NCBI RefSeq assembly: GCF_023195915.1
Contig: NZ_JALPRP010000001.1
Coordinates: 1,426,001-1,490,000, forward strand
DNA length: 64,000 nt
DNA from: Methanoculleus sp. 7T
GTDB lineage: Archaea; Halobacteriota; Methanomicrobia; Methanomicrobiales; Methanoculleaceae
Direction of reading: 5' to 3'
Shown here: positions 48,556 to 52,583 of the stretch, piece by piece
Numbering within the stretch: the stretch's first letter is position 1
Layout: every line of letters starts with the position of its first letter
Program-made: the position numbers and the translations under genes
Notes under the pieces: model-generated
Database searches by the model: none
What the model was told of the DNA's origin: nothing
Seen by the model: the letters and a program-made list of their open reading frames with translations, nothing else

Positions 48556-48678
48556 CCCAGACGTCCCCAGTATCTGCATGGATCCGATCACGGCTGCAGT
48601 CGCATTCCGGCGGCCTCTCTTCCTTGCCGCTCCCGGGAAACCGGCGGTGATCGGCGAGACCTCGGGCGGGTGTTGCGC

Positions 48679-49518
48679 ATGAGGCTGACGGTCCTTGTGG
48701 ACAACGCCGCCCTCACCGACCGCTACTTCCTTGCAGAACCAGGGCTCTCGATCTACATCGAGGACGGCGGGACCCGCGTCCTCTTTGATGCCGGGTACTC
48801 GGGCGTCCTCATCGCCAACGCCCGGAAGATGGGGATCGACCTCCTCCGTGTCGAGGACGTCGTTCTTTCGCACGGTCATCTCGACCACACTTGGGGTCTC
48901 GACGCCCTCGTCCGGCTCCATACCGAGGCGATCTTCGAAGGCCGCGAGAGGGTCGAGCCGACGTTCATCGCCCATCCCGACGCCTTCCTCACCCGGAGCC
49001 GCGACGGCGCCGGAGAGATCGGGTGTCACCTCTCGGTCGAGGAACTCTTCCGGCACGGGAAGGTCCTCCTCACCGCCGCACCCCTCTGGCTGACCGAGAA
49101 CTTGGTCTTCCTCGGCGAGATCGAGCGGCGGTTCGAGTTTGAGCCGGCGCCTTCGGGTGGCTACATCTACACCCCCGACGGTATCAGGGACGATACCGTC
49201 GCCGACGACACCGCACTCGCCTGCAAAACCCCCGAGGGGCTTGTCGTCATAACCGGGTGCTCCCACGCCGGCATCTGCTCGATCGTCGAGCAGGCGCGCG
49301 AAGTCTGCGGCGAAGACCGGGTCGCCGACGTCATCGGCGGGTTCCACCTTCTTGACCCGCCGCAGGAGCAGATGCAGGGGATCCTCGACTATTTTGCGGA
49401 GGTGCGGCCGGCGGCCCTCCACCCCTGCCACTGCACCGGTCTTGCGGCAAAGATCGCGCTCTCGAAGGTCGCAGACGTCCGGGAGACGGGCGTCGGGCTG
49501 CACCTCGAGTACGGTTGA
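48679..49518 (+). CDS. MBL-fold protein, RFA-P synthase-like group
   Basis: A 279-residue metallo-beta-lactamase-fold protein with VVLSHGHLDHTWGLDAL (about 62-78), VVITGCSHAGICSIV (about 190-204) and ALHPCHCTGLAAK near the C-terminus. This combination is found in the group annotated as beta-ribofuranosylaminobenzene 5'-phosphate synthase-like/7,8-dihydropterin methyltransferase-associated hydrolases. Two or three earlier codons (GTG 48670) are possible starts. Its stop codon lies in the left copy of a 10-bp direct repeat that flanks the MITE-like element. Confidence 0.85.
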   Translation: MRLTVLVDNAALTDRYFLAEPGLSIYIEDGGTRVLFDAGYSGVLIANARKMGIDLLRVEDVVLSHGHLDHTWGLDALVRLHTEAIFEGRERVEPTFIAHPDAFLTRSRDGAGEIGCHLSVEELFRHGKVLLTAAPLWLTENLVFLGEIERRFEFEPAPSGGYIYTPDGIRDDTVADDTALACKTPEGLVVITGCSHAGICSIVEQAREVCGEDRVADVIGGFHLLDPPQEQMQGILDYFAEVRPAALHPCHCTGLAAKIALSKVADVRETGVGLHLEYG

Positions 49519-49523
49519 TCAGG
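49514..49523. repeat. Left direct repeat flanking the MITE-like element
   Basis: GTTGATCAGG, identical to 49720-49729; it includes the TGA stop of the MBL gene. Consistent with a 10-bp target-site duplication. Confidence 0.6.
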
Positions 49524-49719
49524 TGGCTTTGTTGAAACCCTGTTCAGGTCTTTCCCCGCCCCGATGAGGGCGGTGCTGGGCCCGGCTTGTCCCCGGGATC
49601 GGCCTTTTCCCTTGACATGTCTCCCGACAGTGGACCGTGGGGGCCTACGGCAGAAAGTCGTGTACCGGTGTGCCCATTGAGTGCGACTATCGAGAGCCAA
49701 CAGGTAGGGATTCGACAAA
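49524..49719. mobile_element. MITE-like non-autonomous insertion of 196 bp
   Basis: The segment is bounded by terminal inverted repeats, TTTGTTGAAACCC at 49528-49540 and the reverse complement of TTTGTCGAATCCC at 49707-49719 (11 of 13 match), and is flanked by the direct repeat GTTGATCAGG (49514-49523 and 49720-49729). It has no open frame of transposase size. It fills the whole gap between the MBL gene and the convergent M1 peptidase gene and touches both stop codons. The parent IS family is not identified. Confidence 0.6.
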
Positions 49720-49729
49720 GTTGATCAGG
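49720..49729. repeat. Right direct repeat flanking the MITE-like element
   Basis: GTTGATCAGG, identical to 49514-49523; it includes the stop codon of the minus-strand M1 peptidase gene. Confidence 0.6.
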
Positions 49730-52583
49730 GCGCGAGTCCCCGGAGCGCCGGGATCTCGCCGTGCTCCGTCTCATAGGCCCGGACTGCCTCCGGGGCGCCG
49801 AGGAGGAATCGGCGGGCGTTGTTGTAGACGGCCGGGTGCGCGCCCGGGTCGATGGAGGAGAGGAGGTCCGCGAGCACGCCTACCGCCGGCGCCCGGTGGC
49901 GGGGCTCCATCGCGTCGATGAATGCAAACGCATCGAGAGCCCGGACGGTGCTGTACTCGTTGACCGGGGTGAGCCGCCGGAGGATCTCCGCGAGGTAAGT
50001 CCGCCCCTCTTCAGTCTCAAGCGACCGTTTCCTATTCAGCGCGAACCGCCCGTAGAGCGCCCGCTGCTGATCGGCCTGCTCGATCGCGAAGGCGGGGGAA
50101 GACTCGATCTCGCGGAGGATCGTCACGAGGTCGTCGCAGTCGCTCCCGGCAACCGTGCCGAGGAACGACTCCCACGCGATTGGGCTCTCGGCCGACTCGG
50201 CGGAGAATGCCGCAAGGATCTCCAGGCGCTCCGGAGCGCTGCTCTCGAGGAGCAGCCTGAAGGCGGTGAGGCGGTCGGTTGCGGCCGTCGCCTCCCGAAA
50301 CTGCCCGGCGATCAAACGGTGGACCTCCGGGGTGTCCAGCGTGGCGAGGATCGCGAGGCACGCGTTCTTCCTCTGCCGCCGCCGGATCGCCGCGGCCTTG
50401 TCTTCCAGATACCCGGCCCCGCCGTGGGTGGGTGTCGCCGCCCGCCGGTAGACCGAGAGGAGGGTATCCGTGTTCCGTGCGGCGACGGCGGCAAGGATCT
50501 TCTCTCTCGCATCATAGAGGGCGCGGTAACGGTGGGCGAACCGTTCGTCGTCCACCGACGGGAAGATGGTCAGGAACTGCCCGCCCGCCTCTTCCATGAG
50601 GCGGTCGTCGGCGAGGAGGCCGGTGCAGAGGTCGGCAAACCGGCTTGAGACTGCCGCATTCGGGTCCTCGAGGAGGCGGAGCATCTCCCGGTCGGCGAGT
50701 GCGCGAAACGCGGTGAAACGGCCGACGATGTCGGCATCCTTCAGGACCTGGAGGTAGAGTTCGTCTTCCGGCGGCCGATAGGCCGCCCTCCCGTAGAAGG
50801 AGTAGCCGCGGTTGAGCGAGAGGAACGCCGGGCGGTCGACGCCGTCGAGGGCGACCTCCCCTTCTTCATCGGCGATACGGATGGTCCGGTCTGCGATCTC
50901 CCGGCCGTCGGCGTCGACGAGCGCGAACCGGAACGGGAACTCCCAGAGGCGGCCGCCGGGCGAGCGGCTCTGGCGGTAGGTGAGGGTGAACCGCCGGGCC
51001 GTTGAATCGTAGGCGGGGGTCACGGTGAGGACCGGGTACTCCTTCTCTTTCAGCCACACCGCCGCCATCCCGGAGAAGTCCTCTCCCGAGACCTCTTCCA
51101 TGCAGCGTATCCAGTCGCCCGTGGAGGCGTTGGCGTGCCGGAACCGGTCGTGGTAGAGGGCGAGCCCCTCGACAAACGTCTCTTTCCCTATCAGGGTCTC
51201 GATCATCCTGACGAACTCGGGGGCTTTCACATAGGTGACGCCCGTGATCAGGTCGTTTGGGTCGTTGAAGCCGTTCGGCTCGATCGGCATCGAGCCCGCG
51301 CCCCGGTCGAGGACGAGCGTGCCGGCATCGGGGTCGAGGAGGTCGAGCACGGTCTGGAGGCGGGAGTAGGCCTCGCCGAAGAAGAAGGCGTGGTGCTGAT
51401 TCTCGATGTGGACCGTCACCGCTTCGTTGAGCCAGATCTCAAACGGGCTTCTCCCCGTCACCTCGGAGCCGTTTTCGTTATGGTAATACTCGTGGACCTT
51501 CACCCTGACCATGTACTCAAAGGCCGGGTCGGTCGCCTCCGGATAGGGCATGAGCCGGTTTGCGGCGATCGTCGTGTTCCCGACGTTCTCCATACCGCCG
51601 AAATCGGAGTTTTGCATGGCGATCTCCCGGTAGACCGATCCCGTGTAGGCGTAACCCGGCGTGATGGTTGCAACAAGCCCCGCAAGCGCTTTTCTGGACT
51701 CTTCGAGGGCCGTCCGGTCCCCCGAGCGCTTCGCCTCGTCTCGAACCCGCGTCAGCCGCCACAACTCCCGTCTGGTCCCCTCGTCCCGGTACCGCTCCGG
51801 ACCGGTGAAGAGGTGGACCCACATCACCGCATCCGCGAGTACGTCGAGGGCACGCTCCGCTGCCTCAGCGTCGGAACCGGGTTTTGCGAGGAGTTCAAGG
51901 GAGAACGTCCGCCCGTCGGGGTACTCGAACTCCCGCCGGTAGGTGTCGTAGCATCCTACCCCGAGGAAGAAGAGGTAGGGAGCCATCGGGGTCGTGGTGT
52001 TCCGATACTCCTGGACGGAACGGCCGAGCCCGAGGTAGTAGCGCGGCCCCGCGGGGTCGCCGTTCGATATGAGGTTCGTATACCCGTCGTCCGCGACGAT
52101 CGCCGTCGTGTAGGTGCACTTCGCGGTCATGTCGTCGAGACAGGGGACCAGCCGCTGGAACCCCCACTGCTGGCACTGGGTGATCTGGATGGGCGGCCCC
52201 ATGGGGCATGTCCCGTCGTAGTAGAGGCCTTCGAGGATATGGCTGCTCGGGCGGCAGATCGTCTCGGTGTTGAGGGTGAACCGGGTCCGGGGCGGGACGG
52301 GCGGGTCGAAGGTGACGGTGAGGGCCGCGGCCTCGCGGTCGTAGGTGTCGGCGACGGTGTATCCTTCACAGGCGACGCTGAGGATATCCAGGTCGCGGGC
52401 GTTTAGGGAGAGGGATGCGAGCGGCGCATCGAGGGTCTCGGCGGTGAGGGCAGAGACGACCCGGGTGTGGCCGTCGTAGACGTCGAAGGTCAGGTCCATG
52501 TGGACGACCTTCACGGCGAGCGCCCCGAAATCCTTCGGGTAGTAGCGAAAGAGCCTCTCCGCCCCTCCTTCTTTCCCGGTCAA
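49725..52583 (-). CDS. M1 family metallopeptidase (aminopeptidase N-like)
   Basis: The protein has about 952 residues. The gluzincin site is VKVHEYYHNE (HExxH), followed 18 residues later by the third zinc ligand in WLNEAVTVHIE, and the M1 exopeptidase loop appears as FGGMENVGN. An N-terminal beta-sandwich binds the substrate, and the C-terminal alpha-helical half (from about 560) is the ERAP/APN-type helical domain with HEAT-like pairs. It trims N-terminal residues from peptides in the cytoplasm. No good ATG fits; TTG 52583, whose TTGA overlaps the stop of the HEAT gene, is the most likely start. The open frame runs far upstream but would cover that gene. Confidence 0.9.
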   Translation of the reverse strand: MTGKEGGAERLFRYYPKDFGALAVKVVHMDLTFDVYDGHTRVVSALTAETLDAPLASLSLNARDLDILSVACEGYTVADTYDREAAALTVTFDPPVPPRTRFTLNTETICRPSSHILEGLYYDGTCPMGPPIQITQCQQWGFQRLVPCLDDMTAKCTYTTAIVADDGYTNLISNGDPAGPRYYLGLGRSVQEYRNTTTPMAPYLFFLGVGCYDTYRREFEYPDGRTFSLELLAKPGSDAEAAERALDVLADAVMWVHLFTGPERYRDEGTRRELWRLTRVRDEAKRSGDRTALEESRKALAGLVATITPGYAYTGSVYREIAMQNSDFGGMENVGNTTIAANRLMPYPEATDPAFEYMVRVKVHEYYHNENGSEVTGRSPFEIWLNEAVTVHIENQHHAFFFGEAYSRLQTVLDLLDPDAGTLVLDRGAGSMPIEPNGFNDPNDLITGVTYVKAPEFVRMIETLIGKETFVEGLALYHDRFRHANASTGDWIRCMEEVSGEDFSGMAAVWLKEKEYPVLTVTPAYDSTARRFTLTYRQSRSPGGRLWEFPFRFALVDADGREIADRTIRIADEEGEVALDGVDRPAFLSLNRGYSFYGRAAYRPPEDELYLQVLKDADIVGRFTAFRALADREMLRLLEDPNAAVSSRFADLCTGLLADDRLMEEAGGQFLTIFPSVDDERFAHRYRALYDAREKILAAVAARNTDTLLSVYRRAATPTHGGAGYLEDKAAAIRRRQRKNACLAILATLDTPEVHRLIAGQFREATAATDRLTAFRLLLESSAPERLEILAAFSAESAESPIAWESFLGTVAGSDCDDLVTILREIESSPAFAIEQADQQRALYGRFALNRKRSLETEEGRTYLAEILRRLTPVNEYSTVRALDAFAFIDAMEPRHRAPAVGVLADLLSSIDPGAHPAVYNNARRFLLGAPEAVRAYETEHGEIPALRGLAP

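What the first reader, a model, noticed from the sequence alone, without database searches (positions are those of the whole stretch)
49514..49729. MITE-like element wedged exactly between two convergent genes
A 196-bp segment has terminal inverted repeats (11 of 13 positions) and is flanked by a perfect 10-bp direct repeat, GTTGATCAGG, that contains the stop codons of both neighbours. It codes for nothing of transposase size. This is the structure of a non-autonomous transposon with its target duplication.
Basis: seen in the sequence. Interest (0 to 1): 0.5.

Follow-up and report, generated by a model that had tools for sequence, protein, structure and literature searches.

The report
Miniature transposon between two archaeal genes
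A 198-base miniature transposon without a transposase gene has inserted exactly where two neighbouring genes of a methane-producing archaeon end, and the few bases it duplicated kept both genes whole; it is an ordinary kind of mobile DNA, here documented with its relatives and its empty site.

Summary
The finding is real and the reading essentially right. In a Methanoculleus genome, window 49525-49722 is a 198-bp non-autonomous element (MITE). Thirteen places in this genome, the window included, carry its end sequences, and 25 of 35 genus genomes (own included) have matches. Of 17 related loci holding both neighbouring genes, none has it; in 13 the genes directly abut, one (L186) with the single-copy target site. 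Its ends and target duplication match an intact 1,010-bp IS5-family element in another genome of the genus.

One correction: the family duplicates 8 bp, not 10. Here that is GATCAGGT/GATCAGGG (7 of 8). The element ends in TT instead of the usual CC, which matches an upstream TT and makes the repeat look like a perfect 10-mer. The duplication carries both stop codons, so both genes stay intact. My search found no matching transposase in this genome (no positive control), so the family here is probably stranded.

Less ordinary: the middle of the MITE belongs to a dispersed mosaic of palindromic repeats, and longer sister copies carry up to about 590 bp of it. Verdict: new member of a known kind.

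The parts
49525..49722 (+). MITE, 198 bp (orientation arbitrary)
   Evidence: 13 places with its end sequences in the genome, absent at 17 of 17 related loci with both flanks, ends GGC[CT][CT]TGTTGAA shared with the family
49525..49541 (+). left terminal inverted repeat GGCTTTGTTGAAACCCT
   Evidence: 13 of 17 identical to the reverse complement of the right end
49706..49722 (-). right terminal inverted repeat; ends in TT where the other copies usually have CC
   Evidence: compare the other copies
49517..49524 (.). left copy of the 8-bp target duplication, GATCAGGT
   Evidence: 7 of 8 identical to the right copy; family duplication is 8 bp
49723..49730 (.). right copy of the 8-bp target duplication, GATCAGGG, identical to the empty site of L099/L186
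49628..49640 (+). CAGTGGACCGTGG, motif of a dispersed mosaic repeat that forms the middle of the MITE
   Evidence: 68 hits at up to 1 mismatch in the genome, 6 for the reversed control pattern
48670..49518 (+). left gene, metallo-beta-lactamase-fold protein; stop TGA inside the duplication
   Evidence: PF00753, 50.3 bits
49725..52829 (-). right gene, M1-family peptidase (start codon uncertain); stop inside the duplication
   Evidence: PF01433, PF17900, PF11940, PF17432

Best explanation
A MITE of an IS5-family type transposition system inserted at the junction of two convergent genes whose stop codons were adjacent (TGATCA). A transposase supplied in trans recognised the GGCTYTGTTGAA ends and made an 8-bp staggered cut; repair duplicated GATCAGGG. 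Because the duplicated octamer contains or completes both stop codons, neither protein changed. Shown: multi-copy family, inverted ends, 8-bp duplication as the family rule, empty junctions in relatives, and an intact transposase-coding element with the same ends and duplication length in the genus. Inferred: that this IS (or a close relative) moved this MITE, and that the family here is now stranded.
For: 13 places with the end sequences in the genome. Both-ended sister copies keep 5-7 of 8 duplicated bases. Of 46 distinct end pairs with at most 1 mismatch per end, 15 have perfect 8-bp flanking repeats and 26 at least 7 of 8, while 0 of 46 are perfect at 9 or 10 bp. Empty junctions: 13 of 17 loci with both flanks have gaps of -2 to 1 bp and none of 23 loci has a MITE match; L099/L186 read GGCTGATCAGGGCGCG where the rejoined window reads GGTTGATCAGGGCGCG. 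Autonomous relative L158:612-1621, 1,010 bp, perfect duplication CAAGCATC, 288-aa transposase, NF033579 IS5 family at 231 bits with cut-off 140.
Against: The DR+TIR pattern alone is not significant (18 of 100 random sequences). The 8-bp parse needs one difference between the two octamers and CC-to-TT at the element's end, whereas the 10-bp repeat is perfect. MITE and IS resemble each other only over the terminal bases by eye, so the cognate link is by ends and duplication length. No homologue of the transposase was found in this genome (which had no positive control; the assembly has 46 contigs). The empty junctions come from other species, not from a sister strain.
Confidence: 0.94

Rival explanations
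1. The duplication is really 9-10 bp, made by a different transposase or by imprecise cutting.
For: GTTGATCAGG is perfect at both sides.
Against: 0 of 46 end pairs have a perfect 9- or 10-bp flanking repeat, 15 have a perfect 8-bp one. The sister copies in this genome anchor at GG...CC with 8-bp repeats. It would require this copy to be cut two bases inside its usual right end.
Confidence: 0.12
2. A conserved non-coding element (terminator, small RNA or riboswitch) of the convergent gene pair.
For: It lies between two gene ends, where a terminator would be expected. Folding is slightly better than shuffled sequence (z -1.55 and -1.38).
Against: The orthologous junction lacks it in 17 of 17 loci with both flanks. 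No Rfam family reaches its gathering score. No terminator-like site was found (bacterial model only). Copies lie at unrelated sites.
Confidence: 0.02
3. A decayed full insertion sequence whose transposase gene was deleted, rather than a MITE that spread as such.
For: It shares its ends with a 1,010-bp IS5-family element.
Against: The short core recurs: a 199-bp copy in this genome and 204-215-bp matches over the full query length in five other genus genomes, so the short form itself multiplied. No transposase remnant was recognised in it; the ORFs in it are under 110 aa.
Confidence: 0.1

Closest known systems
IS5-family insertion sequence L158:612-1621 (another Methanoculleus-genus genome, G001)
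   Same: Terminal GGCTYTGTTGAA, 8-bp target duplication
   Different: 1,010 bp with a 288-aa transposase; no recognised similarity to the MITE beyond its ends
MITEs of Haloquadratum walsbyi (PMC3119063, passages seen)
   Same: Transposase-free, ends and duplication length like those of a known transposon, interior unrelated to it; some lack a functional transposase in the genome
   Different: Different organism; I did not see their end sequences, so no sequence link is claimed
Short elements on haloarchaeal plasmids (L060, L061, L062)
   Same: Left end GGCTYTGTTGAAACCCTCTTCACGTCT resembles this MITE over about 28 bases; L061 is 125 bp with a perfect 8-bp duplication GGATTTTT
   Different: 124-125 bp with a different interior; L060 and L062 show no clear duplication by eye

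Membership tests
MITE | terminal inverted repeats | tested here: met
   13 of 17, 13 of 15
MITE | short and without a transposase gene | tested here: met
   198 bp; overlapping ORFs of at most 109 aa, apart from the flanking genes
MITE | multiple dispersed copies | tested here: met
   13 places in the genome, 25 of 35 genus genomes with matches
MITE | target-site duplication of constant length | tested here: met
   8 bp; 26 of 46 end pairs at least 7 of 8; this copy 7 of 8
MITE | ends shared with an autonomous element able to move it | tested here: inconclusive
   Ends and duplication length shared with an IS5-family element; movement in trans not testable here
IS5 family (the relative L158, not the MITE) | DDE transposase of the IS5 family | tested here: met
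   NF033579 231.1 bits, cut-off 140; PF01609 78.2 bits, cut-off 23
IS5 family, ISH1-type subgroup | subgroup assignment by phylogeny or ISfinder match | not tested
   The subgroup name is recalled; no ISfinder data were available

The most novel reading that the evidence does not exclude
The MITE is a carrier for, or a product of, a mosaic of palindromic repeats that builds up at one preferred internal point: the short ~200-bp form is the core and the longer copies are the same core loaded with repeat modules that occur all over the genome. Transposition of the MITE would then be a route by which such repeat clusters spread.
Probability: 0.15. Interest if true: 0.45.

Novelty: new member of a known kind. 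Interest (0 to 1): 0.22.

Why it matters
It is a clean case, with empty junctions in relatives, of a MITE landing on adjacent convergent stop codons, where the target duplication preserves both genes. It adds to the few described archaeal MITEs; I did not find one described for Methanoculleus (open-licence full text only). The repeat-loaded sister copies may interest those studying how intergenic palindromic repeats spread.

Tried and rejected
A significance claim from the window alone was rejected. A regulatory RNA or terminator reading was rejected. A transposase partner in the same genome was sought with PF01609 (2 matches; neither sits between paired copies of these ends, although L153 has two loose single-sided matches) and with the L158 transposase (no match at E <= 1, no positive control); other transposase families were not searched. 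The junctions with 302-360-bp spacers (L182, L187, L192) and those of L097 and L101 hold other repeat-rich sequence, not this MITE. Literature: searches returned listings; only passages of PMC3119063 and PMC10969869 were seen, no paper was read whole.

Rows dropped: one search used 23 of the 80 loci (the close ones, L180-L201 and L258), of which 6 had no right flank; some come from the same genome, and they probably overlap the 11 unnamed-genome loci. The 81 pairs include chance pairings; the stricter 46 may still include a few. The 86 left-end matches were copied by hand.

Full report
Observation. Taken alone they are not striking: 10-bp direct repeats are common in this window (282, Markov mean 123), and a repeat plus inverted ends of this quality arises in 18 of 100 random sequences.

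Copies. The 196 bp matches 13 places in the same genome that carry its end sequences, the window included, with a fourteenth (C1:535629) matching the interior only at E <= 0.001. One other copy is full-length and short (199 bp, 84% identical). Seven are both-ended but longer (336 to 792 bp by the pairs): C1:1213, C2:167, C1:843, C1:109, C1:1894, C1:1829 and C1:1038 (in kb). Four show one end or part of one (C1:494, C1:1912, C1:1798, C2:478). Across the genus 25 of 35 genomes, own included, have a match and 10 have none. The named relatives fetched with the left gene are mostly Methanoculleus.

Duplication length. With ends anchored at GG...CC, 15 of 46 distinct pairs have perfect 8-bp flanking repeats, 26 of 46 at least 7 of 8, and none a perfect 9 or 10. 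The octamers tend to G or C at both edges with A/T between. In this genome the both-ended sisters keep 5 to 7 of 8, as expected for old insertions; a more distant relative at C1:504 kb has 8 of 8 (L045). For the window copy the anchored octamers are GATCAGGT and GATCAGGG (7 of 8) and its right end is TT where the others usually have CC. I prefer the 8-bp parse because of the family, but the 10-bp repeat remains an unexplained coincidence under it.

Empty site. Of 23 close loci, 17 have both flanks: 13 with the genes abutting (gap -2 to 1 bp), one with a 10-bp gap, three with 302-360 bp of other sequence; none of the 23 has a MITE match. L099 and L186 carry GGCTGATCAGGGCGCG, the window without the element reads GGTTGATCAGGGCGCG. 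GATCAGGG is also present in L093, L180 and L196.

Autonomous relative. Contig ends in one genome began with the same ends followed by coding sequence; a search found this 126-bp end in 6 of 35 genus genomes, six times at 100% in each of G008 and G034. In G001 the element is whole: L158:612-1621, 1,010 bp, CAAGCATC on both sides, a 288-aa ORF, an IS5-family transposase by NCBIfam. Its likeness to the MITE is confined to the ends as far as I compared them by eye.

Function. The element codes for nothing recognisable, matches no Rfam family and folds only slightly better than shuffled sequence. The simplest account is a selfish insertion tolerated because it broke neither gene: a lactamase-fold protein and an M1-family peptidase.

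Interior. The middle (around CAGTGGACCGTGG, 49628-49640) belongs to a dispersed repeat: 68 hits at up to one mismatch against 6 for the reversed control; 23 are exact and 17 of these lie outside the 13 places, though some may be decayed relatives. A 551-bp stretch of the interior of the C1:843 copy has 102 matches in the genome. In three of the seven longer copies the similarity to the window stops at query 117-122; in C1:109, C1:1894 and C1:1829 it stops earlier (88, 70, 69) and for C1:1038 only the right part matched. In other genomes 61 of 86 left-end matches, hand-copied, stop at query 115-126, 5 are full-length, 19 stop at 69-102 and one at 139. So there is a preferred but not exclusive internal boundary.

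Limits. No sister strain was available, ISfinder was not available, and the lack of a transposase in this draft genome rests on one protein and one Pfam family.

Noticed in passing
window 49605-49665; L034, L035, L036 interiors: The middle of the MITE family is built from a dispersed mosaic of palindromic repeats (hairpins such as GCACCTTCGGTGC and blocks of G/C runs); 102 matches of one 551-bp interior in the genome.
   Followed up: partly
L097, L101, L182, L187, L192 at the same gene junction: Some relatives have 300-590 bp of other repeat-rich sequence between the two genes; four of the five spacers are related to each other, and L187 resembles the MITE interior by eye.
   Followed up: partly
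L133-L142 (genome G002): A second MITE type of about 207-293 bp with the same kind of ends and mostly perfect 8-bp duplications, with TTCGCG-rich interior repeats.
   Followed up: no
L060-L062, haloarchaeal plasmids: 124-125-bp elements with the same left end; L061 has a perfect 8-bp duplication.
   Followed up: partly
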